A program made the position numbers and the translations under genes. The notes beneath the pieces are model-generated. The model made no database searches. It was given only the letters and a program-made list of their open reading frames with translations, and was not told the DNA's origin. Below are positions 1,544 through 26,100 of a stretch of 64,000 nt of DNA, in pieces (the first letter of the stretch is position 1; each line of letters starts with the position of its first letter). This stretch comes from Bolinopsis microptera. Lineage: Eukaryota > Ctenophora > Tentaculata > Lobata > Bolinopsidae. The stretch covers positions 11,136,169-11,200,168 of the forward strand of contig NC_087072.1 of NCBI RefSeq assembly GCF_026151205.1. Reading direction: 5' to 3'.

Positions 1544-3518
1544 GAAATGAAATGAAATGAAATGAGGTATTTATATCCCGCTCATATGATTAACCAACAA
1601 CACAAGGAAGAGGTTAACCATGTCAGAGCGGCTGACTGTGAGTAATGTGAGCAAATGTGTAAAATGAACAAAAGTATAACTCAAAAGGGCTTAAGACAAA
1701 ATTAAAACATCTTTTATTGTAAACACCACACTAAACTAAAAAGAAACAGAAACCATACAATACGTGTAGGTATTATAAATGATAATACAGTGACATGATC
1801 AACAAAAAAGAGAGACAGATCCTAGAAAGGTAGAGATCAGGACATAAAATGGAGTGCAGTAAAAAATAAAAGCCAATGTGTCTTGCAAAGTGAAGACAAA
1901 TGGGAAGAAAAAACATCAAAACTGATTATATAAATGGTTCTTTAACATTCGCTTGAAGCAGTTGGTATCAGTAATACATCTCAACATTATTGGAAGAGAG
2001 TTCCATGCAATCGGTGCATGGCTTGAGAAACGTCTGTCATCAACTTTGGACCTTTTATTCTTTGGTACCTTTAACATGAGATGGTCACCAGATCTTTTCG
2101 ACCTGGTCATGGTGTTTGAAAGTTCTGTATCCACTACAGCCACATCTAGTAATGCTTTTAGGTAATCAGGCGCAGTACCGTGAACTGATTTGTGGGTTAA
2201 AAGACAGACCTTAAAGAAGATTCGTTGGTCTATAGGGAGTATGTGGGCCTTCTTATAGAAGGGAACCAAGTCCGTGGTTCTGTCTTCTATGTTATAGATG
2301 AAACGAACTGCCCCATTAAGGGTGGATCTAAGTTTGTTTAGTCTGGTCTTGGGTAGATTCATGTATAGAGAATTACAGTAATCTAACTTAGATATAACCA
2401 GTTGTTTCACCAACATCAATTTAATGCCTTCATCTAGGTAACGACCAATAGTTGTTAGGTTCATCATTGTCCAGCTACATTTCCTTTTGACATTATTGAT
2501 CTGTCTTTCCATATTTAAAGTTTCATCAAATTTGACACCCAGACTCTTCCAGCTGTCTCCTTTGCACTCCGTAGGTAGAATTTCAGTGCTTCCAAATTGC
2601 AGTCTGACACTGAGTTCACACTTTTTTAGAATATGGCTCTTTCCTAACACCAATAGTTCTGTCTTACTTTCATTCAGTTTCATGTAATTCTTCACCATCC
2701 ATGCTTTTATCTCTGCGAGACATTTGTTTGTTCTGTCTTGGACATCAGTGAACTGTACCACACGGTTTGGTTGAAATGAGATGTACAGTTGAGAATCATC
2801 TGCATAGAGCTGTATATCAAGACCATATTTGGCCGCAATTTTCTGGAGAGCTTTGATATAGAGGATGAAAAGAATAGGCCCCAAGAGTGATCCCTGGGGA
2901 ACTCCAAACAAAAGCTCCACGAAAGAAGAAAGAGTATCATCAATCTTGACACAGAAATGTCTTTTCTCAAGGTAGGACTTTATTCATTGCAGCGCACTTC
3001 CAGTAATTCCATAGTCTTTCATAAGCTTTTCCAATAAGACTGTGTGGTCAATGGTATCAAATGCTGCACTTAAGTCAAGAAGTACAACTATGACAACATT
3101 CCCAGCTTCAATTTCTTTGTTAAGATCATCACACATTCTTACAAGTAATGTTTCACAGCTGTGATTAGGGCGGTATCCAGATTGGACTTCTGAGTAAAGG
3201 CTATGATTCGTAAGATGGACATTGAGCTGGTTTAGTACAATTCTCTCTAGGATCTTAGAGAAGGCAGAGAGGTTAGAGACTGGTCGATAGTTACTGAGAA
3301 TATCAACATCAGCATTTTCCTTTTTCAAAGTCGGCTTAATGACAGCTTTCTTCATATCCGAGGGAAAGACTCCAGTCTTCAAGGATGAGTTCAATACGTG
3401 GAGTAAAAAAGGCGTTAGTTCATCAACACAGTTTTTTAAGAGAAATGCTGGGATCGGATCCAAGCAGCAGAACTTGTTGGACATCTTTGATACCTTGTTG
3501 GACATCTTTGATACCAAT
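1544..3518 (-). mobile_element. 5'-truncated non-LTR retrotransposon (CR1/L2-like)
   Basis: The element is inserted on the - strand into copy A. The uninterrupted target is visible in copy B at about 16,857-16,862, so the limits can be read to within the 3-bp repeated target AAT. Its 3' end (low coordinates) is a short TTTCA microsatellite tail, typical of CR1/L2-type elements, and its 5' end (high coordinates) is truncated. A 21-bp unit is tandemly doubled at the truncated end (3,474-3,494 and 3,495-3,515). It carries the C-terminal two thirds of a reverse transcriptase. Because copy B is empty, the insertion is younger than the duplication, or copy B derives from an allele lacking it. Confidence 0.93.
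1916..3517 (-). pseudogene. Reverse transcriptase of the inserted LINE, one nonsense codon
   Basis: The reading frame stays open for about 534 codons apart from one in-frame TGA at 2,984-2,986. There the sequence reads ALQ*IKSYLEKR, where this family normally has a tryptophan (TGG), so a single change broke it. Reverse transcriptase motifs appear in order: the NYRPVSNLS block, motif A LDLSAAFDTIDH, motif B GVPQGSLLGP, and the catalytic YADDSQLY. The thumb and C-terminal region follow to the stop near 1,916. The endonuclease and ORF1 are absent because of the 5' truncation. The motif wording places it in the CR1/L2 group; the exact clade is not certain. The otherwise intact frame suggests a young copy. 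Confidence 0.92.
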
Positions 3519-4384: not shown

Positions 4385-6296
4385 ATGTCATCAATGATGG
4401 AGTTTTATAACACAACCTCGGAACATTTTTTAACTGGGATGTAAGTATTATCGATTAATTTAAACTTTTCTACATAAAGCTAAATGTTACTATCGTTACA
4501 AACATTAGACATTAAAGGAAAAAAATCTACACTGATAAATATTAAAAAACGGTATCACCGGAATCAAAATGTGTCGTTTTTCTGAGGACAGCGGGGGTGA
4601 TCTCAAAAACATTTTGGAAATTGTTTTGGTGAAAAGTGTTCATTTAACAGTAGATATATGTAAATATTAAAGGATTGTTGGTAGATCAAGGATAATGGAG
4701 CAGTTTTTATGTTTCATTTACACACTATTATACTTCCATTTACCAAATAATATCTCTGCTGTTCATCCAAAGCAGTCTTCTAATAAATATTATTTTGCAG
4801 GTTCCTGTCCGTTCTTGCGCTCTGCATTTTACACAAAGTAATGTACTGTGGTTATTACAATTCCTGTAAGCTTGGAAACCAGGCTCCTTTTCCACACCTT
4901 GAACACCGACAAATAGCTCAAGTGTTTAACTACTCTGCTTACGACTCAAATAGCTACTGCAAAAAAGAGGTTTTTGATTTATTATATCTTTTTATTGTGG
5001 TATTAAAATTTGACTTTGATTTCCCATTCATGTAAAATCCAGATGTGGTTCTTAAATCTTAATATCCTTAATCTGTTAATGACATAGTTCATAATCTTTC
5101 AGATGACATCCGAGGTAAACTACTACAAGAGCAGCTGCCAGGAGATGTATTCAGCACCGAGCGTTAGTACTGATCGGAATGAGCACTACGATTACATCAA
5201 TGATGGGAACACTGATGTCAAGAGAAGTCTGATTCCGAGCAAGGATATGATCCGATCACCAATAAGAAAGAAGCCAAATATCCAGATCCAAAAGAAAGAC
5301 TACGTTGTTCCTCAAGGATACGTTTTAAGCCCCGACCCAGTGGCTAAAAGCTGTCAATACGAAAAGAAAGAGAGCCCCTCCAGTAGTCCTGCACCTCAGA
5401 AAGAACCTCTTACTCTGGCTGACTGTAAGACAACATTTCTTTAATTTCTTAACCATATTTTGGGACGTTATAAACTTTCGACGTGTGTTCAACCAAATTA
5501 AGCAAATATTTTGAATATATCTAACATGATCTCCAATTGAGTGATTCACTTTCACTTTCAGTGCTATTGTCGGGTGAGATCCCTTTCTCCCCAATAGAAA
5601 GACCTAATACTGAAGCTGCCAGGATATTCTACAGTGCTCCCAATACACCACCTATACTTCCAATTGGTAAGATCATACGTGACAAAATGGGTGACAAAAT
5701 TCATTTATGAACACATGTCAATCTTAATGACGACATATTGATGTACCTGTGCAGAATGTTAAAATGTTTAAAAAGATTGCAGATTCATCCATATTCCATT
5801 GATGAAGTTTTGAAGATCATTATCCCTCTCAACCCCCAGATCCACAAAGTTGGAGTGTAGCAGAAGTGATGTTTTGGCTAAGATGGTGCTCCAGGAAATA
5901 CGAGATTCAGAACATTGATCCGCATATGTTCGGGTTTAATGGAAAAGCAGTGTGTCTTCTGACCAAGGCTATGTTTAGATACCGAGTACCAACAGGGAAA
6001 GGAGCTCTCATTCTCTACATGGTTAGTATTTTAGATATATTTCTGAATTTCATTGAAGTATGGAGGGAAAGAAAGAGGTGTGGCAGAGACAGAATGGAAT
6101 ATTTTACTTACATTTTCAAAGACACATTTATTCAAGAAAAATGATCAATAACCAACGTTTGCTACAGGAGATCAAGAACAGAAAGAAACATGCTAAAGTT
6201 CAAAAAGAGGCGAACGAGCTGAGGCATCGCAGAAGAGAGGAGGAATTTAAACGAGAACAGGGACGACAGAATTCGACTGGATTAAATGTAATGTGA
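4385..6296 (+). CDS. PNT/SAM-domain protein, TEL/Yan-type, without ETS domain (copy A)
   Basis: Six exons join with consistent phases: 4385-4440, 4801-4969, 5103-5424, 5562-5666, 5840-6021 and 6168-6296, giving 320 residues. All junctions are GT-AG and are conserved in copy B. Residues ~218-283 form a Pointed domain: SWSVAEVMFWLRWCSRKYEI, then FGFNGKAVCLLTKAMFRYR, closest in wording to ETV6/TEL and Drosophila Yan. A basic, probably helical tail follows and the frame stops at TGA 6294, with AATAAA at 6,393. No ETS winged-helix domain follows. PNT domains of this class polymerise or pair with other ETS proteins; Drosophila Mae/EDL is a known PNT-only antagonist, so a regulator of an ETS factor is the likely role (inference). 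Residues ~18-32 are unusually hydrophobic, so exons 1-2 are less sure than exon 5. Confidence 0.82.
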
Positions 6297-6392
6297 CGTC
6301 ATGTAATATTTGATATTTATATCATGGCACTTTGATGAGATATTTGATAGAATCATATGAACCTTCAGTGATTGCTAGACAGCGTGGAGATT

Positions 6393-6398
6393 AATAAA
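6393..6398 (+). terminator. Poly(A) signal AATAAA, PNT gene copy A
   Basis: AATAAA lies about 97 bp after the stop codon and is conserved in copy B. It supports the gene ending here, without a downstream ETS exon. Confidence 0.65.
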
Positions 6399-6585
6399 GT
6401 AATATAGTTTTACTGTTATTCTGTATGCTTAATTAATTTGACAACTTATCTTTTTGATATCATAGTTTAAATTGTATCCAGTAAACACTCTCCATCAAAT
6501 TAAAAGCTCAATCTACCCAATTTACCAAATCTATTCCTCGAAATGAAACTTGAAGTAAAATAATCAAATGATTTAAAATTTACTT

Positions 6586-6607
6586 CATTCCATCGACACA
6601 GCCATAC
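6586..6607 (-). pseudogene. RAD52: RAD52 exon stub at the duplication edge
   Basis: Reverse-strand reading gives YGCVDGM followed by a donor-like GTAAAT. This matches the end of the RAD52 exon at 19,915-20,011. The sequence to the right (6,608 on) is unrelated, so this is the break left by the tandem duplication. Confidence 0.75.
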
Positions 6608-6660
6608 ATATTGATATACATATATCGTCTCGCTTTACATTTAAATTGAATAACTCCTAA

Positions 6661-6966
6661 AGTGCTGGGATTGACGAAATCTCTGATGAGCAGTTTAAGT
6701 ACGGGACAAGTGGTCTTGTGGATAGGTTGGAGATATTGTTCTCTAAAGTTTGGAATTCAGAAACAGTGCCTGACGACTGGTTGAAAGGCATCGTGATAAT
6801 TGTCCCGAAGAGGGGTGATACCTCCCACTGCTCCAATAATAGGGGGATCACTCTTAGATCTACAGCATCTAAACTGTATCAAATCATCATATTACAACGT
6901 ATTTTGAGCCCGTTTTTTGACGTATTTAAAAGCAATATGGGGAATGGGGACGTTCTGCTGGCTTAA
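6661..6966 (+). pseudogene. Reverse transcriptase N-terminal fragment
   Basis: An open stretch of about 100 codons reads SAGIDEISDEQFKYG, then VPDDWLKGIVIIVPKRGD and NNRGITLRSTASKLYQIII. This is the block just before motif A of LINE reverse transcriptases (KAAGID... VPDDW...PK.GD....NRGI). It degenerates after about residue 85 and stops at 6,966, only 14 bp from the stop codon of the receptor gene on the other strand. It differs from the LINE at 1.5-3.5 kb. It probably lies antisense in the receptor's 3' untranslated region. Confidence 0.75.
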
Positions 6967-6979
6967 ATTACATTTGCAA

Positions 6980-9900
6980 TTAAGTTTGCTTCACTTTTAA
7001 AACTTTCATCTCAATCATTTGAACTTCATTGATTGATTGTTTCATTGATATAGGAAGTGCTTGATTGTTCAGGGGAAACTTTCCGATTTCTCCACTTTTT
7101 AGCAAAACATTGTTTCGATTTTTGTTGACCTTTTCTAATAGCATTGTGGCGAAATCGTTGTACAAGATAGGGTTAATTACAGAGTTGAGAGGTAAGAATA
7201 CTATGGATATAAGAGAATAGTAGGGTGTAGCATCGATGACGGCTCCCGAGTGGAGACAGGAAGCTATAGTAACTGGTAACCAACAAAGGAAATCCGTTGC
7301 TATAATCAGCGATATTTTTCGCTGTAATCTTCGGTTTCTTTTCCTAACCTCATGGCCTGTATTTGTTTTTCCCCGAGTAAGCACTTTGGACGTTGTTCTG
7401 GTCCTATAGTTGATGAAAATGTAGCAGACTGAGATTATTAAGAAGCAAACCATGTTTAATGATAGGATGCCCCAAGCATAAATTCGTTGAGGATCGTCTG
7501 CTTTAACAAAGAACTTGAATAGACAAACTCCTTCATTCCCGTAAAAGTCTATTTTCTTTCGACCAAGTGCATCACCTCCATAATCACTTGAAAACATACC
7601 ATCAACAAGATCATTTATCACTCTCCATTTCAGATTTTTGCCCTTAATTTTGCCATAGTATTCTTGTAGGATGCTGAGATGGATTTCTTTTCCAGGAGCT
7701 CCGATAAAGAGTCTTACTGAGGATTTGTATGTCATGCCATTTACAAAGAAGTCTTCAAATTGAGGCACCAGAGGAATTACTGCAATAGTAATACACAGCA
7801 TGACGATAATTATTGCAATTAGACACATTTTGAAAAGGAATTTTCTTGTAAATGGTTCGCTGATCCGAGTCTTACCTCTTATTACCCCTAGCCTAGCTAA
7901 AGCAAGAATAGTCATGGAAATAAGAGTCATTTCAGAACCAATGGTGCTGATGACGCCTATAATGTTACAATGAGCGCTAGACAGCCAATTTATATGTTCG
8001 GAACAGTATCCACTCCCATAAACTATTGTGTCCATTATTGCTATATAGATCAAATACACTCCGATCAGCAGATCACCTAGATTTATTACAAGTATCAGCA
8101 TCTTATTGTTCATAGCCACTTTTGATATTTTGTTGTTGAAAGCGGTTAGATTTTGATAGAGTGAAATCAAGTTCAGGAATATGGCTAACACAGCCAGACT
8201 CCAGCTCAAAATCTTGAGAAAAGTGTTTTGTAATATTTGTTTGCCACAGTGTGCGTTACACTCGTCTGAGAAATCCAGACAGTCGATAATTCCATTACAC
8301 TTTTCAGTGATTGGGACCAGTTGGTTTTTGGAATCACACAAAAACACATTGGTGCAGAGTATTTCGTCAGAGCCATCCCCACAATCATCGACCACGTTAC
8401 AAACTTGGTCATAGTTTATGCAAATACCGTTGTCACAACTAAAATAGTCATTTCTGTACGACTCATTACCTACTTTTGTCACGAACGAAAGAAAAGTATT
8501 ATCAGAAACTGTGTATATCCTATTTTGGTGTTGTTGAGGACAAGAAATGTATTGGATCTTTTTTTGCAAAGGGCAATTCGAGTCTTTACAATACCCAGCA
8601 CAACTCAGTGTCACGTAAACTTCTCCAAAGATATGATCACAGTTAACTATTGTGTTAGGGCGGATTATTTTCAATATGGATTGAACTCCAAAGACTTCAA
8701 GTCCCGTAAGATTGACTTCATTGATAACGCAACGATTTGCTATTTCCTGCAGACCCTCTAGACCAGGCAAGCAATACAGCAAAACTTTCACCTCTCTGCC
8801 TGATTTCCGCACAGTCAGTACACTGTCAAAGGTAGGATTGATCTTATGCGACTTCTCGCATACTGTAGTTTCACGACCACATGTATTAATCCCATCACAT
8901 AAATCTTTGAATTCTACGAAGGCTGCTTGATCATGTTTACAAAGAAACACCTCCTCACACGTTTTATTGATTGACACTACGAATCGTTTTGTTGGACCAA
9001 TGCCACAAGTTTGCCACACGTCCTCCTCATCGATTGCATCTAAACAGTCCTCAACCCCATCCCTTAGCCATGCAATGGGAATTTGTAATGCCTGGTCGTG
9101 TTTGTTGACCCTGTGACAAACCCTCTTTGTCATGGAGCGACAGATTGCTATTTTCTCATCAGCCCCGCTCAGACAATCTTCAATTTGGTCACAAAGTTGG
9201 TGTTTGTGTATCTCACAGGTGAGGGATACCTTGACACAGACCTGGTCTATTCCGTTGTCACATAATGTTGGAACCTCTTGTTGACCATGACACACAACAA
9301 ATTTGGATACGGTTGAAAGATATCCATTGATATAACAGGTTATTGTCGACCTGCTCTGGTCTGTACAGTTGGTTTGATCTACAAAGTTATCACAGATAGG
9401 ATCACCTAAAACTTCAGTGTCAATATTCTGCTCAACGCTGAATGGAGCGCTACACCTTGTTATATTTATAATTGGGATAACCGAAGAAGTTTGCCTTCCT
9501 GTAAAACCATTGAAGATTGACCTTCTACATTTTTCGTGTCTTGGTAAGGAGTCAGGATCTGAACAGTTTCTTTCATCCTCACCATTTAAACACAGGAATG
9601 TCAAGTCCCCATTGCACACTTCACTTGGTTTGACGTATTTGAGTTTTTGTCCCCAGCCGATGCAGTACAAACCGTATAGGTAACCACTACAGAAAGCCTC
9701 GTCCTCGCACCATTTTCCTTCACAACGTCCGTTACAAACTGAGGACTTTCCCACTGTTAGTCCGCTTCTTAAAGTTAGATGAACTATATCATCCTCTTTA
9801 TTTTCTGCTGAACAAAAGTTGGCCGGTAAATTGAAGCAGGTTTGCGAAAAGGATAGATTGTCAGCTAATGGGTTCTTGTGGCACATCGTCGCTGAAGAAA

Positions 9901-10575
9901 CTGTAATGACAGACATACTTCCCTCCCAATAGGCGTTTGGGATGACAGCGTTTGTTTTCAGTACGCAGACGTATTCGTTACAAATTGCAGCAGAGTTTGA
10001 TAAAGTCAGCAAATTTTTGATACCACAGCTTTGATAGAAATTAGGGTCGTTGTCGCAGACGGTGTCGAATGTAGAGTAGAGGTACACTGGTAGTGGTCTG
10101 GCTACGTATAGCCTGTCAGAGTAGGGACATTGAAATACTGTGTAGCCTAATTCCTCAAAACAAACTCTCTTGAGGAAATTGTATCGCTCCACGATTGGAC
10201 AAGTGCTCTTCAAAGGACCGCAGAAGAGGATAGCAGCTGATTGTAAATTATTGTGTCCTTCACTTTTTTTAATTTTAAACGTCGCATTAACAGTTCCGTT
10301 GTTATCCACCGAACAGAAAATATCATCGAATTCAAACATGAATTGCGTATGCTTCCATTTTGATTCGACGACGGTTTTTAGATTTGAGAACCAACTTATT
10401 GCAACCTGGTACCCTATCTTTTGACATATGTGGTTAGGCAGACAATCTTGATCGAATCCTTTGCTTTCGTGAAATAATATAGGGCCCCAGGATTTGCCAT
10501 CCTGGACGAACAGGACACCGAATCCATTCGTTGCTAGCGTACCCTCATCGTTGAGCAGGTAAAACGTTGCATTAC
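6980..10575 (-). CDS. Large adhesion-like receptor: SRCR-like region, LDLa repeats, 7TM (3' exon)
   Basis: One exon of about 1,197 codons ends at TAA 6,980-6,982. The frame stays open upstream of the first internal ATG (10,339) to an acceptor AAACAG at 10,576, so the start lies in unseen 5' exons. Order from the N end: an SRCR-like region (GFGVLFVQDGKSWGP, CQKIGY, DDIFC...ILFCG), then five or more Cys-rich LDLa-type repeats, some degenerate, the clearest being CDNGICINYDQVCNVVDDCG. The C-terminal ~370 residues are a class-A 7TM domain with NLGDLLIGVYL in TM2, DFLCWLPV in TM6 and PLNSVINPILYN in TM7. TM6-TM7 wording resembles glycoprotein-hormone/relaxin-type LGRs and snail GRL101. No leucine-rich repeats are visible, unlike RXFP or GRL101. 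The DRY position reads ARLGVIRG, without DRY. Ligand unknown; plasma membrane expected. Confidence 0.85.
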
Positions 10576-10748
10576 CTGTTTAAATCGTTTCTATGGTAAA
10601 TGAAGCTAAAATTTGGGCCCATAGGGACGTCAACTTATTAATTACATATCTCGTATGCCTTGATGTGGCTAGTTAAAGCTCTGAAGACAGAATTTTAAAC
10701 TTAAAAGGCGACGATTTTGTGTCAGTTAAGAAAAATATTATCACCAAT
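10576..10748. other. Upstream of the receptor exon, no exon recognised
   Basis: This should be intron of the receptor gene. No signal peptide or further SRCR exon could be picked out here. Confidence 0.4.
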
Positions 10749-10756
10749 CCACAAAA

Positions 10757-10817
10757 CAGTGGCGTAACGAAGGGCCCCGCCGATCCCGCTGTGGCAACAG
10801 GCAACGTTACGCCACTG
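10757..10817. mobile_element. 61-bp hAT-type micro-MITE
   Basis: The terminal inverted repeats are perfect over 13 bp (CAGTGGCGTAACG ... CGTTACGCCACTG). The element is flanked on both sides by the same 8 bp, CCACAAAA (10,749-10,756 and 10,818-10,825). CAGTGGCG-type ends and 8-bp target duplications are hallmarks of hAT transposons. It has no coding capacity, so it would have moved with a transposase from elsewhere. Confidence 0.88.
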
Positions 10818-11065
10818 CCACAAAATATCATATCTAAAAATCCCCATTTAACAACAGCTAGTAAGTTCATTGAAGTATACATAGTATATACTTACTTTTG
10901 GGTAGAGTGTGTAAAGATCGTATCAGAATAACTATTAGCAGCAACATTTTTCCAGATTCCATACACTGCAGACTGCTGTAAACTTCGGATAGTGAGCTTT
11001 GTTTCAATACATAAAACTAGAATTACTAGCATACCATTCCCTTAAATAATGGGGTGGGTGACAAT

Positions 11066-11380
11066 TTACCCCCCCCCCCCCCGACAATTGACCCCCCGAC
11101 AATATAATTTAATACAATTAACCCTGACCATGACCCTGACATAGGACCCTGACCCTGACCCAGGACCCTAACCCTAACCCTGACCCTGACCCAGGACCCT
11201 GAACCTGACCCGGACCCAGGACCCTGACCCTGACCCTGACCCTGACCCTGACCCTGACCCTGACCCTGACCCTGACCCTGACCCTGACCCTGACCCTGAC
11301 CCTGACCCTGACCCTGACCCTGACCCTGACCCGATCAATTGACCCCAGTGTAGTTACATGGGGGGTCAATTGTCGAGACA
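11066..11380. repeat. TCAGGG/CCCTGA hexamer array between inverted repeats
   Basis: About 215 bp (11,120-11,333) is a nearly pure CCCTGA array, with a few CCCTAA and CCAGGA variants at its left side. It is bracketed by a GACAATTGACCCCC motif on the left (about 11,091) and its inverse GGGGGTCAATTGTC on the right (about 11,359). A poly-C run sits at 11,071-11,084. On the - strand the array reads TCAGGG, one base from the animal telomere repeat TTAGGG. Confidence 0.85.
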
Positions 11381-11452
11381 TTTTAAATGCTAACATTGTT
11401 CGTATTGATATATCTAGTCGAAGGTAACAATGGCCACGCAATAATACCACTA

Positions 11453-12377
11453 CAGGGTGAGTTGAAAATAGTGTGTAGAGTGTAAAAATCGAATAAAAAT
11501 TCTCAAAGGCCTATCTCGAAATTCTGTCTGACTCATCTTTTCTAAATGATCCCTAGAACATATCCTGAAAGTTTCAGGGTGATTACTCAAAAAATGTAGG
11601 AGAAGATAGATTTTTAGACTCGATTTTCAGGGTACGCGATCAAAAATCACTCGCGCAATACAATTACCACACACGCGCTGACCTTTGACTGGCAATAATT
11701 TCGGCTAGGAACGATATTTTTCCACGGGATCAAAAGCATATGATAGATATTACTCCCCTCTATCAGAAACAACTAAAAAGTCGATTTTGAGAACATTTCC
11801 ATGTAGACCCCCCCCTGCCCCCTTAATACAGTCAAGTCGGCTATGCCTATAGACAATTGTCTTACACGTTATCAACACTAGCAGGAACCCGTCTAACCCT
11901 AAAGTGGTGTCAAGACTCAAGAGACTAAAATAATTATTACCTATTTAATTTGCGTTTTTGACACCACTTGGGGGTCCAAATTTTGGGCTCTAAAACTCCT
12001 ATTTCTTGGCCAATTTTTTATTTTTTCATGCTGATTTGAAGGCCATTAAAGCATTTGAACCAGTCAAAAAAGTTTCAGTTGTATATCTTTTAAGGTTTTT
12101 GCGGAAAGTCGTGTTAAAGTTGATGCCATGGTGTCAGTAAAATGGCACGGAATCATATATATATATATATCGTCTCGCTTTATATATAGTAAGATGGCAT
12201 AGCTAATAAAGGATGATGGGTTGAGCAAATTATTAATTATTAAGAATTTTAATTGTATGTATTATTATAATATTTTTATATTTTCATTACCTAAATATGC
12301 AAAAATTAAGTGAACATTTCATTTGTCAAAAAAATTAGAGTCATTTACATTTTACACACTATTTTCAACTCACCCTG
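11453..12377. mobile_element. TA-flanked inverted-repeat transposon, 925 bp
   Basis: The left end begins CAGGGTGAGTTGAAAATAGT and the right end is its exact inverse (ending ...CAACTCACCCTG). Both sides are flanked by TA (11,451-11,452 and 12,378-12,379). A TA target and CAGGGTG ends point to the Tc1/mariner superfamily. No transposase frame is visible, so it is non-autonomous. Its interior contains one copy of a dispersed ~320-bp repeat (11,876-12,195). Confidence 0.78.
11876..12195 (+). repeat. Dispersed ~320-bp repeat, copy 1
   Basis: It begins CACTAGCAGGAACCCGT and ends ATCGTCTCGCTTTATATATA. Near-identical copies lie at 34,475-34,786 and, truncated, at 41,788-42,018, all in the same orientation. 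The 3' terminal motif alone recurs at about 6,617-6,640, next to the duplication edge. No coding potential; family not identified. Confidence 0.88.
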
Positions 12378-12379
12378 TA

Positions 12380-13735
12380 TATAACGATGCAATAAAAACA
12401 GTTAGTGTGCAGTACGTTAAAAGCACCGCAACCATTTTGAGACATATTTTTATATTTTATGTTTTAAGGTCTGTTGTTTGCTCTGAAGATTTGATTGGAC
12501 GCATCAAATTTAATCAAAGGGGTTTTTAAAAAGTGTATATTTATTCCGTATATAGTATTTGACCAAAACCCATAATTGGGTAGAGTGGACCGCTGCCAGT
12601 GTCTCTCTTTCCCAAACAAAAGGAAATGATATCAATTTGAATAACCGTTTTTTAAATGCAAAATATTACCAAGAATGAAATCGGTCGCTCGCTTTTGGGT
12701 TTTTTACCGAATTTCGTATAACAGTACTGGTGCGTATTTTTCTTAAATAAAAAAAAATTCTTAAAAATCTCCACATAACTATTTCTTATTCCTGACATCT
12801 TTGACATTCAATTAGAATGTTTTGAACTTAAAATATGCCTGCTGAACTACTTTCGGTCAGTCTAATGCCTGAAAAAAACAGTAAAGGGGGTATAATAGTA
12901 TAAGGGGTAAATAGTGTGGTGAGCATAATGGCGACGGTCAGTCGGTCATGCTTGCCAGCACTGTGACAGTCAGATACGTCCCAATTTAAGCCTTTGTCGG
13001 ACATAATCCGCAACAAGGCGATTTCAACGGAAAATGGTCGGGTACTAGGTCCCAGGAATCATCCCAGAGAGTTCTCAAAATTTCTGACGCCAGCAAAATC
13101 CACAATTACCACTTTTACCACCTTTTTACCACATTGGTTTTCCGCAAATAATTAAGTCAATTTCTGAATATCATAGAAGATCTTAGTTTAAACCAGTGTG
13201 TTAAGAAAATAAAGGATAACAACGTTTCTTTCTAATAATTATTTAGTCTCTCGAGTCTTCATTCAACTTGGTGCCAAACAAATTCAATGTTTGAACTAGT
13301 AAGACTAAGTAACTAAGTAATTTTAATCTCATCAATATCTTCATTTTGGAATTTAATCACGGATTCTGATTAAACAGATCTTGGTTGTCAGTAAATCTCA
13401 ACGAGCTACAGACTAAAACCGGGGAAGTAGGAGTAGCTACGTCAATAGTGGGCAGAAAGATGGTTTTATGATTTGTGGAAATGCTCTCCAACTAGTGACT
13501 TCACAACCTTATTAAACGAAGCCCTATTTAAAGTTCGATCGTAGATATGCAACGAAGCAATATATTAATACATCATGATTAAAGCGAGGAAAAGAGGTGG
13601 TACACCATTTTAGATATGACGCTGCACAGAACCATTTTAACGCTCTATTATATATAAGCGTATGCGAAATAATCTAAATCCCAGGAAGTTTAACCTCGTG
13701 AGACAAGCTAATTATAACACACATAACCCCGGCAT
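12380..13735. other. Intergenic, no gene recognised
   Basis: AT-rich sequence with short open frames only. Neither strand shows family motifs or consistent splice pairs. Confidence 0.5.
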
Positions 13736-13740
13736 GCGCA

Positions 13741-14648
13741 GGGATTATATTTCAATTTTTCCCGCGACGCGCGGGAAAAATTTATAATAATTTCGAGTGC
13801 GAAGCACGAGGGATTATTATGAAAATAACCCCGACGTGCTTTAGCACGAGGGGTTATTTTAATATAACTTAAGCGTGCCGGTGTTATGTGTTATAAACCC
13901 CTCCGGGTTAGTGCTAGGACCAACAAATTTGACATTTTACTCTTAATTCTAGCTATATGAGATCATTATGGAAAATATGAAATGAAATTGGGGACTACCA
14001 AATAAATACAACTAAGGTACTATGACTTTTGAAATTGGCGTTATATCTAAACATTATTCCTCAGTCAGAACGTTGAATGAATATGAATATCGATAAGGGG
14101 CGTCGAGTTAAGCCTGGCAAGCGATAAAAGCTAATAATGATATCGTGTCATGAAGTTCATCAAAGTAGACGACTATAATACATGGCTTATATCAAACACG
14201 ACAAAATTAACCGAACCGGACAAAATCAAATGTAACCGTCGAGACAAGTTTTGGAACTGGTCCAATTAATGTAAGAGTTTAAGTAATGTAAGCAGTGTGC
14301 TGGAGTTTTGCCAGCGCCTGCAATTAGACCGATACGTAGATCGAGTGTATTTATAGTTCTTACGTTAAGCCATAGGTCACGTGACATTTTTTACCAATGC
14401 GCGTCGTAGTAGTTAGTCACGTGATACACGTCATCAAAACACGTGACAGTGCGCGGTTGAAATTCTCATGGAATATCAAAACAAAACAAATCTTGTTGAG
14501 CCAAATTAGCGGGGCGGGATTATAAAAGCTGTGCCGGGGTTATTTATTCAGCGGGAAAAAACTAACAGCGGGAGCCGGGATTATCAGAATCTATTTAGCG
14601 GGAGCCGGGATTATCAGAATCTTATTCTATCCCGGAGGGGTTTATAAC
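13741..14648. mobile_element. Hairpin-rich inverted-repeat element
   Basis: An 18-bp perfect inverted repeat pairs 13,890-13,907 (GTTATAAACCCCTCCGGG) with 14,631-14,648. Immediately outside and inside are strong hairpins: an 11-bp stem of TTTTTCCCGCG type near 13,758, and a two-part stem at 13,822-13,860 (AAAATAACCCC pairs with GGGGTTATTTT). A 26-bp unit around GCGGGAGCCGGGATTATCAG is tandemly doubled near 14,569-14,621. The region is visibly more GC-rich than its flanks. No open frame and no target duplication found; type unknown. Confidence 0.6.
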
Positions 14649-15867
14649 GCCTACTCGCTATTTAAAGGAGAGGGTGCGGATCATTCCCACGAGAGGGAGA
14701 GCGTGAGCTGCTAAATTCAAAAGTGGTTTATATGAAGCTTTGAAGGGGTAATGATTGCTGTGACGCACGTAGAACCCTTTATAGAATCAGTTATATAGGC
14801 ATGCCTAAGTCGTTTAATCTCGTATATGCTCCCCAGTAGTGTTCGATTTCGTGACCTTTTTTAGTAAAAATTTGCTTCTTCGTTTTTTGTGTAATTTGTT
14901 CTATTTCAAGTATATTTGTTATAACTTATAGTATTAATGTACTAAATGTGTAATACAGTGGCATGGGTTACCAAAAAGTGATAATGAGTGTTTCAAATTT
15001 TCCAAGTTACCATAGTGACTAAAATATTAAATCTTTACCTTTTGATCAGTTTATGATATTATGTGGATTCATTTTCTGTGAAGTGTTTAAGATAAACATG
15101 ATCTTAGACCAAAGTAGAGGCAGCCTGTCTATTACAACACAGAACAAATGTTCTTCGTGAAATAAAAGGATGACAATCTAAAAATTTAAAACCCGAGGCT
15201 TAATTGGGGTTCAAAGAGGGTCTTGGAACAACTTCTCACATTGTGAAAGCTTATCCTGTTTCCATATCTGTTTGGTTTCATAGTCCACAGATCATATTGA
15301 CCAGTAAAAAATATCTAAGTCCATGAACACTGTCTCTTTTATCGTGACCCAGCACCATCTTTATCTTTATAGCTTTATCCATAAGACAAAACAATTGTTG
15401 AATCAGGAAACAAAAGGGTTGTATAATAATAAACACGTTTAAGCGGTCTTTATGATCCATCTACAAGTAAAATGATTTGCTTTATTTTTGCAAATTTTTG
15501 CACTCAGCTAGAAGGCATATTTTTAAAGATTTGGAGATTACCGTCCACGATGATGAAAGGGTAGACTTTAGAATTGGTGGGATATAGCCCTGAACTGAGT
15601 ATTTAAAAAGACAACATAAGGTACAGTAAATAAGGGGCGAAAAGTTGGTGTTTGAATATAAGACCGTCGATCAGATGTAAACCTTAACGAGGACCCGACA
15701 TGAGCTTTAAGATTTTTCGTTTAATCTATTCTTGACCTAGTATCAAAATCAAACCATAATTCTCTTGATTATGAACTATGCTCCATACGCATAGAGTATT
15801 AAATTACTCGAAACTGCGTAGAAGCAGTTAAGAGGTGTAATGATATTAATGGTTCATCTAATGCCAT

Positions 15868-15906
15868 CCTTATGGAATCCATTAGATTCTAATGGATTCC
15901 ATAAGG
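15868..15906. repeat. Perfect 17-bp hairpin
   Basis: CCTTATGGAATCCATTA is followed, after a 5-base loop, by its exact inverse. Copy A has only the right arm (near 832-848), so the hairpin was gained in B or lost in A after duplication. Confidence 0.75.
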
Positions 15907-15912
15907 ATCAAA

Positions 15913-16415
15913 TCAAATGAACACATCAGTAAATGATGCATTTAGTGACTGGAGGCCGCCCACAAAAGCAATTAAACAGTCAAGCATAAACGATCTGCAA
16001 GTTGTCGCATACGAGGGACATAGGTTGTCAGAGGCTTTATGGGTCTTTGCTGAGTTCTTCTCCGAGTGTTTACTACTTTTGGCACAGTTAGAGCACTTTA
16101 TCTTTGTGACAATATTTTCACTCTTGCTTCTGCAGTCTTTTGACTTGTGGTTTCCTGCACAGAAGAAACATGTTGGGTCTTTATCTTTGGCTTTACAGTA
16201 CATGGAGTTAGCCATGTGACCAAATTCCTGGCAATGATAACATTGGATGACATGAATTCGGTCTGTAACATGGTGTTCCCTAAGGTCAATATGAACATAG
16301 TCTCTGTTTTGTCCATAATAGGTAACAAAAACAATGGTGAATCTGTATCAGCTTCCTTAAATAAACGCGGGTCCACTAATACAAGGTGCCATTTCCAGTT
16401 TTCATTCCCAGCTTT
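15913..16415 (-). pseudogene. LINE ORF1 zinc-knuckle fragment
   Basis: Reverse-strand translation gives three closely spaced Cys/His knuckles: CYHCQEFGHMANSMYC, CFFCAGNHKSKDC and CSNCAKSS...CP. A segment just before them (YYGQNRDYVHIDLREHHV, DRIHVIQ) is typical of the region before ORF1 zinc knuckles in non-LTR elements. An in-frame stop and frameshift near 16,345 separate it from an upstream piece reading VDPRLFKEADTDS. Nucleic-acid-binding ORF1 proteins of this type coat LINE RNA. It is a dead remnant upstream of PNT gene B. Copy A has lost the knuckles. Confidence 0.8.
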
Positions 16416-16969
16416 GTTTTGACTTTTCAGTGGAAACTATTTCGGTGAGTTACTCAACACTTCATTTCATTTTCATATACAATGCAGCCGGTTAAGTTTA
16501 AGGGAGTTGCCATTTGACAACTGCACCATCATATTATAGGTTAGGCTCGTACGTCACGAATTTAACTCTGCCGCTGCTCACGCTGCTATACCCTCTGTAT
16601 AATCATATCTATATTGACCAGAAATTTGAAACTTACAGAAGCGCAACAGAATATTATGTCATTTTTGTTCAACGATATACATCTTCAATATCAGTCTGAG
16701 TACAGAATAAAAATATAACCGAACGACTTTATGGTGATTTTGAGAAAAGAAATAACCTCGCGGATATCCATAAATTAATAAAATTATCCCAAGTTCGCTC
16801 CTTTTGAGGCCAAATCGGTGAATAGAATTAGACCTTCGGGGTCTTCGGAGTAAAGAATTAAATATGTAATTTCAATATTGAGCCATTTTTTACACTAGGA
16901 TAAAATAATAAAGTTATGTCTTAAAAAAGCTTACTTAATGAATCGTATGGTTGCCACTCTTCCACTTAT

Positions 16970-17304
16970 GTTGTGACCCTTTTAAGATACTGCAGATACG
17001 TGATTTTTGCACTTAATCAGTGATTTCGTCACCAATCAGTAATCTCATCGGGAGCTATTCGCTAGCGAGCAAAAATGAGACTCATTAAGCGGTAACGAGC
17101 ATGTTGGTGGATGACAATCTGATCACTTTGAGTGAATACTGATAGTGACGTTCCTTAAAACCGAAACAATTTGCGTTATACTTATAGCGCTTCAGTTGCT
17201 GTCCTATTAAAGCAGTTTCCAACCAATCAGGGCATTGATTGTGTGAAGATATTACTGATTAAGTGCTGGATCACATATCTGCAAGATCTTAAAAGGGTCA
17301 TAAC
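16970..17304. mobile_element. MITE-like inverted-repeat element (copy B)
   Basis: Same element as 3,642-3,970, with the same ends (GTTGTGACCCTTTTAAGAT ... AAAAGGGTCATAAC) and a small insertion (CTTATA) in the interior. Confidence 0.5.
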
Positions 17305-17719
17305 TCGATTAAATTGTGAACAACCAACTTAAAATTTGGGGAAAGCACTTCAATTATCAAGCCAAATGTGTCTAGAAACTTTGGAGTTCCTAGCTGAAAG
17401 CGTTCTCACTTTATGGTGACAATAGTGAAAAAGAGGGAGTGGCGTGCCACAACCACTGTAATTAATTAAATTTAAGATTACATTTCTAAGAAGAATTACG
17501 TGGGTTATTAAAGGGTTGCGTGTGGGCAGTTACTTTTGGGCAACCCTGTAGGTTCATGGGGCAAAGGGGTGTCCGTACTAAGTTAGCGGTACATTAACTT
17601 TGAACAAACGTTTTGGTAACCCGTGTTCTGTCTATTACTATAAGACTCTAACCCCACCTGCAGCTACGAACTTGTAGTTATTTTTTGAATATTCTGTTTA
17701 AAAGCTGTAAATTACAGTC

Positions 17720-19642
17720 ATGTCATCAATGATGGAGTTTTATAACACAACCTCGGAACATTTTTTAACTGGGATGTAAGTATTATCGATCAATTTAAAC
17801 TTTTCTACATAAAGCTAAATGTTACTATCGTTACAAACATTAGACATTAAAGGAAAAAAATCTACACTGATAAATATTAAAAAACGGTATCACCAATCAA
17901 AATGTGTCGTTTTTCTGAGGACAGCGGGGGTGATCCCAAAAACATTTTGGAAATTTGTTTTGGTGAAAAGTGTTCATTTAACAGTAGATATACGTAAATA
18001 ACTGTATAAAATATTAATGGATTGTTGGTATCTGATCAAGGATAATGGAGCAGTTTTTATGTTTCATTTACACACTATTATACTACCATTTACCAAATAA
18101 TATTTCTGCTGTTCATCCAAAGCAGTCTTCTAATAAATATTATTTTGCAGGTTCCTGTCCGTTCTTGCGCTCTACATTTTACACAAAGTAATGTACTGTG
18201 GTTATTACAATTCCTGTAAGCTTGGAAACCAAGCTCCTTTTCCGCACCTTGAACACCGACAAATAGCTCAGGTGTTTAACTACTCTGCTTACGACTCAAA
18301 CAGCTATTGCAAAAAAGAGGTTTTTGATTTATTATATCTTTTTAATGTGGTATTAATATTTGAATTTGATTTCCCATTCATGTATAATCCTATGTGGTTC
18401 TTAAATCTTAATATCCTTAATCAGTTAATGACATAGTTCATATTTTTTCAGATGACATCCGAGGTAAACTACTACAAGAGCAGCTGTCAGGAGATGTATT
18501 CAGCATCGAGCGTTAGTACTGATCTGAAAGAGCACTACCATTACATCAATGCTGGGAACACCGATGTCAAGAGAAGTCTGATTCCGAGCAAGGATATGAT
18601 CCGATCACCAAGAAAGAAGCCACATATCGAGATTCAAAAGAAAGACTACGTTGTTCCTCAAGGATACGTTCTAAGCCCCGACCCAGTGGCTAAAAGCTGT
18701 CAATACGAGAAGAAAGAGAGCCCCTCCAGTAGTCCAGCACCTCAGAAAGAACCTCTTACTCTGGCTGACTGTAAGACAACATTTCTTTAATTTCTTAACC
18801 ATATTTTGGGACGTTATAAACTTTCGACGTGTGTTCAACCAAATAAAGCAAATATTTTGAATATAATCTAACATGATCTCCAATTGAGTAATTCACTTTC
18901 ACTTTCAGTGCTATTGTCGGGTGAGATCCCTTTCTCCCCAATAGAAAGACCTAATACTGAAGCTGCCAGGATATTCTACAGTGCTCCCAATACACCACCT
19001 ATACTTCCAATTGGTAAGTTCATACGTGACAAAATGGGTGACAAAATTCATTTATGAACACATGTCAATCTTAATGACGACATATTGATGTACCTGTGCA
19101 GAATGTTAAAATGTTTAAAAAGATTGCAGATTCATCCATATTCCATTGATGAACTTTTGAAGATTATTATCCCTCTCAACCCCCAGATCCACAAAGTTGG
19201 AGTGTAGCAGAAGTGATGTTTTGGCTAAGATGGTGCTCCAGGAAATACGAGATTCAGAACATTGATCCGCATATGTTTGGGTTTAATGGAAAAGCAGTGT
19301 GTCTTCTGACCAAGGCTATGTTTAGATACCGAGTGCCAACAGGGAAAGGAGCTCTCATTCTCTACATGGTTAGTATTTTAGATATTTTCTTAATTTCATT
19401 GAAGTATGGAGGGAAAGAAAGAGGTGTGGCAGAGACAGAATGGATTATTTTATTTACATTTTCAAAGACACATTTATTTAAGAAAAATGATCAATAACCA
19501 AAGTTTGCTGCAGGAGATCAAGAACAGAAAGAAACATGCTAAAGTTCAAAAAGAGGCGAACGAGCTGAGGCATCGCAGAAGAGAGGAGGAATTTCAACGA
19601 GAACAGGGACGACAGAATTCGACTGGATTAAATGTAATGTGA
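17720..19642 (+). CDS. PNT/SAM-domain protein, TEL/Yan-type, without ETS domain (copy B)
   Basis: Exons 17720-17775, 18151-18319, 18452-18770, 18909-19013, 19187-19368 and 19514-19642 give 319 residues with the same phases as copy A. The PNT exon encodes exactly the same protein as copy A; the two differences I see there are silent. In contrast, a ~45-residue stretch of exon 3 has about eight changes and a one-codon deletion relative to copy A. The basic tail differs by one residue (Q for K). This pattern suggests selection on the PNT domain and relaxation in the linker. Function as for copy A: probably a dominant partner or antagonist of ETS proteins, by analogy with Mae/EDL. AATAAA follows at 19,741. 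Confidence 0.82.
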
Positions 19643-19740: not shown

Positions 19741-19746
19741 AATAAA
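19741..19746 (+). terminator. Poly(A) signal AATAAA, PNT gene copy B
   Basis: AATAAA lies about 100 bp after the stop codon, conserved with copy A. Confidence 0.65.
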
Positions 19747-23146: not shown

Positions 23147-26100
23147 CTGTAAGATTAGATTTCTGAGTTAGCAGATATTTAATTATCTATCTAGGTATTT
23201 GATGGATATTGTGTAATTATATTACCAATATTACTTTAATCATTGAATCTGTACTGTAAGTGATCATATGAGCTGATCATAATTCATATAAATGTACAGA
23301 ATTATTTCCATCAACTGCCCTAATTTCCCGATGCTCAAGGCAACAAGGTAAATAATTGCACAGAGTTTGTCGAGGACATTTTAATATTTTGTTGAACTGG
23401 AACGAGACCCCGTGAAAAGTTACATTTTGTAGCTTTATGCGTTTACACATCTTTTTTGTGAGTACTGTCTGTACAACAACATAACGTAACAGAACAATGA
23501 CTTTCAATTTAATTGACCCTGACACTAATTCTATGCGAACATTATGATATAACTACAGACTCACGATAATATGAATCAAGGAGCTGGAAGAATTAACACA
23601 TATAATAATACATTACATATATAATAGTAGTTTAGCAAAACTGTTTGTTATACCGTAGAAGGAAGGCTTTGTGATCTGAGTTTTGCAATTGCATGCATTT
23701 TAGTGATTGTTTTTTGTATCAAGTCCTAATAGCTTTGACCCGCCCTGTCCGTTCATTACTCATTCTACAGAGCGACCAGTCTACATTTTACAGATTCTGT
23801 ATGCGATTTGTTAATTGTAAAATCTTCAAAAACCATGCTCCAATGACCAATATACACAATATACTACAGCTACTCAGGTATCAGTTTGGTTTGGTGTGCA
23901 GAGTGGTGAATGTTCGTAATTTCTAGTAAATGAGACACTTGCTCATTAAAGAAAGGGTAATATGGGTCTATCTGTATAGTGTCTATCGGCTATTTTTTAT
24001 TCAATTACATGAACAATATTCATTCCTCGCGACTCACAAGACTTGATTGATGAGTGTACGCTGTAAACGATGCCATGATTTATTATGAGAGATTTCAATT
24101 TTAATTTCAGTCCGTGTAAACATTCAAAATGGTGGCATCATGGTATGTGACGTAGTATGTGCTGCAGCACGTGCCGTATATTAGGGATCATGTTCCGTGG
24201 CATGTGACACATCACGTATCCGAGAATGTACTATATTATAATATATCCATTTTAATACAACTCTGGATTTATAGTTCAAGTTGTTGTCGCTCTATTTAAA
24301 TTAAGTCTCCTTTAATACAATGATGATCCAAACACAGCATTAACCTTATATTAATTATATATATATATATATATAGACCAGTCACCAGTGTTCACAAAAC
24401 TTTGACCAGGTTGCCGGTTGTTTTTACTACTCATTGCACTATAAGGCTTCCTTAAAATATTTGATCGTATTTATTTTAATGTTGCTTAGACTGCTATAAA
24501 TGGCATACAATTTTTGCTCCATTCTCATTTTATTTTATCTCGTTAATAGTTAATAACGTTGACTTTCTACAATCTAACTTCCTTTAGCCGCAGTGATGAG
24601 ACCCCACGACTTCAATTTCAACAACAGAACCATGTACGGAATAAAAAGTGACACACAACGATACATGTGGGCGGGATATTTCCTGTTTGTAATCCTTTCA
24701 TCCCTGATAGGAGATACGATTATCCTTATAGCATCTATAAAGTTCAAAGCTTTCAAACTTCACAAAGTCATGGTTATCATCATCCAACACATCGCAGTCA
24801 GCGATATGATCCAGTCCCTCATTTACCTGGTCCCCAGATCTGCTGCTATAATGACTGACGGATGGGCGCTAGGAGCCACTTTGTGCTACGTGTATCCGTA
24901 CACAATGTACATTGCTAACTCGAGTGGAGCTCTATTAATCTGCGCCATGACTTTCACCAAGCTTTTTACTCTGAAGTACCCACTTAAATCTAATACTATG
25001 TCATCGAAAAAAGCCCATTTTATCTGCATAGCCGCTTGGGCAATGTCCCCATCATTTCCGATCATGAATTTTATAGTTGACATGAGTGATGTCTCTTTTG
25101 ATTTTCGTAACTATATATGTGATTTCCAGAATTCATCAAACGTATGGAAATGGCTGACTCCAGTGACCTCAGTACTTTTCCTGGTTATCCCTACCTGTCT
25201 TGTTATCACCACAACAGTCGGCGTGCTGATCATTGCTAAGAGGGTAGCAGAAAGAGGTCGTCAGAGTTTAAAATGGCAGGGTATCGCAACAACAGTTCTT
25301 ACAGCAACAGTCTACTGCATCTCGGTGTTGCCTTACGCCGTGTATCGTATCGGTGAATCAGTAATCGATGTGGATGACAAGAGCAAGAGTTTTTTCTACA
25401 CAACTTTCTACAGGCTTGTGAGCTCTTTTTATTCCCTGAACACTATTTGCAACTTTTGTATTTACAGCTTGACAGTGGCGAGTTTTAGAGAGTTCCTCAG
25501 GTCAGGAACCAAGAGAAGGCAATCTCATCAGAAAATATCGTTAGACACTTTCTCCAGTCGAGGTATAGTAAAGATTATGCATCTATCTTACAATTAACAA
25601 ATTTGGCTCCTTAATTTACTGTCGGTTTGAACCGTCTTCAGTATCAAAATATTTAAAATCGACAAAATTAATCAGATGATAATGTTATTCTAAATATTTG
25701 TACTAAGTCTGCCCCTACCCCATACAAAACTTTGTGTTTCGGCAGGTACGAGGGGTGATATAGAGAAGGGTCGGATAATGAGAAAGGAGCTAAGAAGTAT
25801 TCCCAATGCACATTGAGAGTTTAAACATCCCGCTTTAAAGTAAGGTCCTGTTTTAGAAATTATGATATGAGATAGATTAGGTACGGAGATAGATTAGGTA
25901 CGGTGATTTTCAACAAGTTATTAAACAGTACATAGACGATTACACGTCAGTTGAATCCTGAAATTCGTTACATGTGTTGCCAAATGTACTTCTGAACGTG
26001 GGTTTTTCTTAGGAAATAAAAATAGCCTGAGGCCTAATTTTCTACACATGCGAGTGCATGACATGATTGTCTATAAAAAGTGTTGAAAGTGTAAAATGAG

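What the first reader, a model, noticed from the sequence alone, without database searches (positions are those of the whole stretch)
4385..19642. Twin PNT-only, TEL/Yan-like genes with no ETS domain
Both copies encode a full Pointed domain very like ETV6/Yan, a basic tail, a stop and a poly(A) signal, with no ETS DNA-binding domain. The only well-known animal PNT-only regulator of this type is fly Mae/EDL. Here it comes as a tandem pair with a novel ~215-residue N-terminal region. The PNT exon is protein-identical between copies while the linker of exon 3 has changed at about eight positions, so the domain seems constrained. This is the best candidate in the window for an undescribed regulatory system: dosage-doubled ETS antagonists.
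Basis: partly seen in the sequence, partly recalled or inferred. Interest (0 to 1): 0.8.

Follow-up and report, generated by a model that had tools for sequence, protein, structure and literature searches.

The report
Eleven-gene Pointed-only protein family
The two genes belong to an eleven-gene family that kept the protein-pairing (Pointed) half of a well-known type of gene switch but has no DNA-binding half, in what is probably a comb jelly, where such proteins most likely tune other gene switches or assemble with each other.

Summary
Both window genes are clean six-exon models (320 and 319 aa) with a TEL/Yan-type Pointed (PNT) domain, a basic tail, a stop and AATAAA. The genome (264.65 Mb, 13 chromosome-scale contigs; it fits the comb jelly Bolinopsis microptera) holds 11 such genes: searches with exons 4, 5 and 6 return the same 11 loci. 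None lies within 3.4 Mb of an ETS match. Only one PNT, GABPA-like on C5, sits beside an ETS domain. No TEL/Yan-type ETS domain was recognised among ten ETS loci, of which six were ranked against PDB chains. Synonymous sites are saturated between family branches while the PNT and a 35-aa block before it change little, so the ETS-less design looks old and selected. A hydrophobic N-terminal segment is conserved in 9 of 11. 'Dosage-doubled ETS antagonist' is not shown: the pair alone is weak evidence, and Mae's acidic EH change is not seen. Most likely these proteins co-assemble through PNT domains and modulate PNT-bearing ETS output; self-assembly is the main rival. Verdict: new variant of a known kind.

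The parts
4385..4440 (+). Gene A exon 1 (MSSMMEFYNTTSEHFLTG.)
   Evidence: GT donor; coding status supported by the conserved phase of exon 2, start codon not proven
4801..4969 (+). Gene A exon 2, begins with the conserved hydrophobic segment FLSVLALCILHKVM
5103..5424 (+). Gene A exon 3, fast-changing linker
5562..5666 (+). Gene A exon 4, conserved 35-aa block LLLSGEIPFSPIERPNTEAARIFYSAPNTPPILPI with invariant S-P and T-P
5840..6021 (+). Gene A exon 5, TEL/Yan-type PNT (SAM_PNT) domain
6168..6296 (+). Gene A exon 6, continuation of the last PNT helix, basic tail (13 K/R of 42), stop
6393..6398 (+). AATAAA after gene A
   Evidence: read directly
17720..17775 (+). Gene B exon 1
18151..18319 (+). 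Gene B exon 2 (hydrophobic segment)
18452..18770 (+). Gene B exon 3
18909..19013 (+). Gene B exon 4, conserved block
19187..19368 (+). Gene B exon 5, PNT
19514..19642 (+). Gene B exon 6, basic tail, stop
19741..19746 (+). AATAAA after gene B
   Evidence: read directly

Best explanation
These are two of eleven genes for PNT-only proteins in a (probable) ctenophore. Shown: a TEL/Yan-type PNT, preceded by a strongly conserved 35-aa block with S-P and T-P sites and followed by a basic tail, with no ETS domain near any copy, and purifying selection on the exon 4-5 core. Inferred: the proteins bind other PNT/SAM domains head-to-tail through the fully invariant mid-loop (ML) side around NGKA. They co-assemble with each other and bind the end-helix (EH) face of PNT-bearing ETS factors, of which the only one recognised here is the GABPA-like gene on C5, and so tune ETS output downstream of MAP kinase. 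The T-P site before the PNT is a plausible MAPK switch, by analogy with ETS1/2 and Pointed-P2.
For: The same 11 loci carry exons 4, 5 and 6. Among single-domain PDB chains the PNT is closest to ETV7 (47.8 bits), Yan (45.9) and ETV6 (up to 45.4), then Mae (31.6); multi-copy ETV6 constructs head the list. Columns 26-36 (DPHMFGFNGKA) are invariant in 11 of 11. Between distant branches exon 5 dN is 0.11-0.14 with dS 1.9 to saturated, and exon 4 dN 0.03-0.11 with dS 1.5 to saturated. S-P and T-P are kept in 11 of 11. The nearest ETS match to any of the 11 is 3.48 Mb away, while the C5 PNT is 3.2 kb from its ETS exon. Precedent: Mae binds the EH face of Yan and of Pointed-P2, blocking MAPK docking on the latter (PMC9499636, passages); the TEL2 SAM alone inhibits TEL1 and ETS1/2 (PMC3355116, abstract and sections 3 and 8 part 1).
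Against: No binding, expression or localisation data. No TEL/Yan ETS partner was recognised, so the classic target is missing. A hydrophobic N-terminal segment (mean hydropathy 1.93 over 19 aa in gene A) is odd for a nuclear protein. The last PNT helix departs from TEL. The structure could not be predicted usefully: exon 5 alone gave pLDDT 49. Some copies are damaged.
Confidence: 0.4

Rival explanations
1. Self-assembling scaffold: both SAM faces stay hydrophobic, so the eleven proteins form homo- and hetero-polymers of their own and have nothing to do with ETS factors.
For: The stretch G-A-L-[IL]-L-Y-x at the start of the last helix has no acidic residue in 11 of 11, unlike Mae, whose EH hydrophobic residue is Asp. 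Several paralogues in one genome make hetero-polymers possible. No TEL/Yan ETS target was recognised.
Against: The last helix departs from TEL (GALILYMEIKNRKKH against GDVLYELLQHILKQ), an invariant Glu follows the stretch, and the register of the EH face is uncertain. TEL's own PNT also polymerises, so self-assembly would not exclude ETS binding.
Confidence: 0.3
2. Membrane-tethered PNT: the conserved N-terminal hydrophobic segment is a signal anchor with the N-terminus outside (an N-T-T or N-T-S sequon precedes it in the seven copies where exon 1 was aligned, His-Lys follows it), placing the PNT in the cytosol, where it captures SAM partners or is released by cleavage.
For: Hydropathy 1.93 (gene A) and 1.89 (C12_3) over 19 aa. 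The segment and its exon phase recur in the highly diverged copies C10_b and C3.
Against: The hydrophobic run is short; with exon 2 alone C10_a and C10_b reach only 1.26 and 1.38 over 19 aa. It was not found in C12_b1 and C12_b2. Exon 1 is one base shorter in C12_1 and does not splice as aligned in C10_a. It could equally be a buried helix or an export signal. No topology predictor was run.
Confidence: 0.15
3. Decaying remnants of a lost TEL gene, multiplied by segmental duplication, without function.
For: C12_4 has a stop in exon 6 and lacks the AG acceptor there; C12_1 has a one-base-shorter exon 1; C10_a has no GT donor at the aligned exon 1 end.
Against: Low dN against saturated dS in exons 4-5. 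Third codon positions vary in 31 of 35 (exon 4) and 46 of 61 (exon 5) codons, against 8 and 19 variable residues. Four of 11 six-exon frames are open throughout (one of them with nine bases not fetched).
Confidence: 0.05
4. The ETS part is added by trans-splicing or by a distant exon.
For: Cannot be excluded without RNA.
Against: The nearest ETS matches are 3.5-7.5 Mb away or on other contigs. Each of the 11 loci has its own tail exon, which ends in a stop in the models.
Confidence: 0.03

Closest known systems
Drosophila Mae / EDL
   Same: PNT/SAM domain without ETS domain; PNT-only regulator as a gene of its own
   Different: Mae has an acidic residue in its EH face and is a monomeric cap (PMC3355116); not seen in the GALxLY stretch in 11 of 11 copies here. 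Mae is further from this PNT (31.6 bits) than Yan (45.9), ETV7 (47.8) or single ETV6 domains (37.8-45.4). Here 11 genes, a conserved block before the PNT, a hydrophobic N-terminal segment, and no Yan partner recognised.
Human TEL2a (ETV7) SAM-only isoform
   Same: TEL-type SAM predicted without ETS; the TEL2 SAM construct inhibits TEL1 and ETS1/2, and its action on TEL1 needs both faces (PMC3355116)
   Different: An isoform of an ETS gene, not a separate gene family
TEL/ETV6 and Yan ETS repressors
   Same: PNT of the same type by sequence
   Different: No ETS domain near any of 11 copies; last PNT helix divergent
GABPA-like PNT+ETS gene on C5 of the same genome
   Same: A PNT domain
   Different: Another PNT class: GABPA 28.8 bits, ETS1 25.1, single ETV6 chains at most 15.3, although multi-copy ETV6 constructs sum to about 30-31; linked to an ETS domain

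Membership tests
SAM_PNT (PF02198) | Profile match above the curated cut-off | tested here: met
   55.0 and 54.8 bits against cut-off 24 for the window copies; all 11 loci over cut-off
TEL/Yan ETS factors | TEL-type PNT | tested here: met
   ETV6, ETV7 and Yan are the best PDB matches
TEL/Yan ETS factors | C-terminal ETS domain | tested here: not met
   No ETS match within 3.4 Mb of any of 11 copies
TEL/Yan ETS factors | Hydrophobic ML and EH faces allowing polymerisation | tested here: inconclusive
   ML block invariant; EH stretch hydrophobic but different from TEL; no usable model
Mae/EDL | PNT without ETS domain | tested here: met
Mae/EDL | Acidic residue disabling the EH face (monomeric cap) | tested here: not met
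   No D/E in the GALxLYx stretch in 11 of 11, though an invariant Glu follows it; the position was judged by alignment to TEL only, Mae's own sequence was not seen
Mae/EDL | A Yan/TEL-type ETS partner in the genome | tested here: inconclusive
   Ten ETS loci; in the 6 ranked against PDB the best match is ETS1/2, ETV1/4/5 or ERG, never ETV6; four not ranked; assembly gaps possible
Mae/EDL | Binds the EH face of ETS-factor PNTs and inhibits them | not testable with these tools
   needs binding and reporter assays
MAPK-switched PNT proteins (ETS1/2, Pointed-P2) | Phospho-acceptor threonine (T-P) N-terminal of the PNT | tested here: met
   T-P, with S-P 19 residues before it, in 11 of 11; that this is a MAPK site was not tested and the exact spacing in ETS1/2 was not compared

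The most novel reading that the evidence does not exclude
Ctenophores have an expanded class of stand-alone PNT proteins in place of TEL/Yan ETS repressors: either the TEL lineage lost its DNA-binding half and was kept as an 11-member PNT assembly system, or PNT-only genes are ancestral and TEL/Yan arose later by joining such a PNT to an ETS domain. Their conserved hydrophobic N-terminus may anchor them to membranes, making them a cytosol-facing PNT-capture system.
Probability: 0.25. Interest if true: 0.8.

Novelty: new variant of a known kind. Interest (0 to 1): 0.6.

Why it matters
PNT-only regulation of ETS factors is known, as a dedicated gene, from fly Mae and, as a predicted isoform, from human TEL2a. 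An old, expanded, selected PNT-only family in a ctenophore, a lineage that PMC10232365 (title and start of abstract) places as sister to other animals, with no recognised TEL/Yan ETS gene, would show that stand-alone PNT proteins evolved outside the fly. It makes the order of events (loss of the ETS half, or later fusion) directly testable with other ctenophore and sponge genomes.

Tried and rejected
Structure: AlphaFold2 on exon 5 of the 11 copies gave pLDDT 49 and pTM 0.38; not used, and no fold search was run. PDB ranks for two ETS domains at over-strict thresholds returned nothing and were repeated at looser ones. NF-kB (PF00554) as a taxonomic marker: no match, but the tool says this does not show absence. 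COX1 to identify the species: no match. The exon 3 end of C12_b1 and C12_b2 was not recognised, so their joined frames were wrong; their exon 3 was left out of the dN/dS table, and exons 1-2 of four copies were not in it. Exon 2 of C10_b and C3 was found later and was not added to it. Three sub-threshold PNT candidates (C1:8.475 M, C6:6.695 M, C11:3.613 M) were not followed. Trans-splicing and pseudogene readings were considered and ranked low. Literature: I saw nothing on PNT-only genes in ctenophores in the listings. These lists are capped (for example 20 of 375 papers, 8 of 391) and cover open-licence papers only; one search returned none. In PMC11193209 the passages shown (12 of 15 places) speak of Nematostella ETS genes and not of ctenophore PNT genes. 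PMC12221973 holds neither 'ETS' nor 'Pointed'.
Full report
What is there. Both window genes are six-exon models with consistent phases and GT/AG sites, ending in a stop and followed by AATAAA. Each encodes about 320 aa: an N-terminal hydrophobic segment, a variable linker (exon 3), a 35-aa block (exon 4), a PNT domain (exon 5 and, by alignment, the start of exon 6) and a basic tail (13 K/R of 42 residues in gene A). For gene A, Pfam finds SAM_PNT and nothing else at E up to 0.01.

Which genome. G000 has 264.65 Mb in 232 contigs, of which 13 are chromosome-scale (C1-C13, 97.5% of bases; C14 is 198 kb). A passage of PMC11797021 gives Bolinopsis microptera as 265 Mb, 346 scaffolds, 13 chromosomes. 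A passage of PMC10232365 gives 13 scaffolds with 97.23% of bases. I take it as a ctenophore, very likely this species; no diagnostic gene was confirmed (searches gave no match).

The family. PF02198 gives 12 PNT matches over cut-off; one, on C5, is of another class. The exon 6 tail and the exon 4 block each return 11 matches, beside the other 11 PNT exons: two in the window (C1A, C1B), a tandem array of four on C12 near 10.94 Mb (C12_1 to C12_4), C10_a at 8.89 Mb, C10_b at 0.198 Mb, C3 at 21.16 Mb, and C12_b1 and C12_b2 at 13.74 and 13.99 Mb. Four of 11 are open in all six exons (C1A, C1B, C12_2 with nine bases not fetched, C12_3). C12_1 has a one-base-shorter exon 1. C12_4 has a stop in exon 6 and no AG acceptor there. 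C10_a ends exon 1 without a GT as aligned. Exon 1 was not found for C10_b and C3, nor exons 1-2 for C12_b1 and C12_b2, in the stretches fetched.

No ETS domain nearby. PF00178 at E up to 10 gives 14 matches in ten loci, one locus (C10:5.42 Mb) below the cut-off. The nearest match to any of the 11 PNT genes is 3.48 Mb away (C10_a); it is 5.22 Mb for C10_b, 7.48 and 7.50 Mb for the window pair, and there is no match on C12 or C3. As a control, the C5 PNT lies 3.2 kb from its ETS exon. That C5 PNT fits GABPA best among single-domain chains (28.8 bits; ETS1 25.1; single ETV6 chains at most 15.3), although multi-copy ETV6 constructs sum to about 30-31 bits. Six of ten ETS domains were ranked against PDB chains; the best matches were ETS1, ETV1/4/5, ETV1/5, ETV4 (only two chains shown at that threshold), ETS2/ERG and ETV5 (where ETV6 is about 5 bits behind). 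ETV6 was the best match in none. Four loci were not ranked, and assembly gaps or withheld stretches could hide a gene.

PNT class. Among PDB chains the window PNT fits ETV7 (47.8 bits), Yan (45.9) and single ETV6 domains (37.8-45.4), then Mae (31.6), ETS2, GABPA and SPDEF (about 31); ETV6 multi-copy constructs head the list.

Selection. The window pair by itself is weak evidence: exon 5 against introns p = 0.29; exons 1, 4, 5, 6 pooled p = 0.008; exon 3 is no slower than introns. Across the family it is strong. C1A against C10_b or C12_b1, and C10_b against C12_b1, are at or near synonymous saturation in exons 4 and 5, while exon 5 dN is 0.12-0.14 and exon 4 dN 0.05-0.11; exon 3 (where compared) and the tail change faster (dN 0.27-0.55). 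Third positions vary in 31 of 35 exon 4 codons and 46 of 61 exon 5 codons, against 8 and 19 variable residues; in the tail 19 of 31 compared residues vary. In C1A against C10_a, exons 4-6 have a higher synonymous share than exons 2-3 (p = 6.5e-6, counts rounded). Between the closest copies the picture is mixed: C12_1 against C12_4 has exon 3 dN/dS near 2 on few changes. The longest invariant run of the PNT is DPHMFGFNGKA, the ML side by alignment to TEL (the assignment of ML and EH sides rests and on TEL mutants recalled from memory, A93 and V112).

New features. Exon 4 carries S-P and T-P in 11 of 11 copies. [quoted passage not shown] Exon 2 opens with a hydrophobic segment (FLSVLALCILHKVM in gene A), present in 9 of 11 copies. 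It recurs in C10_b and C3 as FLCLLVLHLLHKLIM, in the same exon phase and with an in-frame one-codon difference, which argues that it is translated. Up to and including the exon 2 ATG gene A and C10_a differ at 5 of 43 bases, after it at 44 of 123. It may be a signal anchor, a buried helix or an export signal.

How it may work. Mae uses its ML face on the EH face of Yan and of Pointed-P2; on Pointed-P2 it blocks MAPK docking (PMC9499636, passages). Mae cannot extend a polymer because an EH hydrophobic residue is Asp (PMC3355116). The family here lacks an acidic residue in that stretch, though an invariant Glu follows it, so a TEL2a-like co-assembling module is a better analogy than a Mae cap. 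Yan repression depends on tuned SAM affinity (PMC6226293, passages), so added SAM-only protein could tune such systems. That no Yan/TEL factor was recognised points to the C5 GABPA-like PNT or to the family itself as partner. All of this is inference.

Verdict. It is a new variant of a known kind.

Noticed in passing
window 6980-10579 (-): Long open frame (1199 aa) of an LDLa-repeat rhodopsin-type receptor lying between the two PNT genes, on the opposite strand.
   Followed up: partly
window 24578-25597 and 26201-27169 (+): Two neighbouring rhodopsin-family receptors, each in a single open frame.
   Followed up: partly
window 28605-30752 (-): Lipoxygenase in a single 715-aa open frame.
   Followed up: partly
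window 11121-11332: About 35 copies of the 6-mer ACCCTG, resembling a telomere-type repeat, inside the chromosome.
   Followed up: no
window 32248-34133: Long GAG-rich degenerate minisatellite with long open frames on the minus strand.
   Followed up: no
window 43188-44201: Higher-order tandem repeat (43, 128, 231 and 359 base periods).
   Followed up: no
window 1916-3517 (-): Reverse-transcriptase-like open frames in two pieces, a broken LINE-type element by appearance (not searched).
   Followed up: no
L005/L033 (C10:0.19 Mb) and L006 (C3:21.16 Mb): Near-identical PNT genes about 0.13 and 0.2 Mb from the ends of two different chromosome-scale contigs, with GTTAGCAT-type repeats beside exon 2 or 3: a sub-terminal duplication by appearance.
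   Followed up: partly
L006 and L005: Extra fragments matching exon 4 (L006, L005) and exon 5 (L005) within introns of the C3 and C10_b copies.
   Followed up: no
G000:C4:10176776 and 10178445: Two similar ETS-domain exons 1.7 kb apart; the first is closest to ETS1 among PDB chains.
   Followed up: partly
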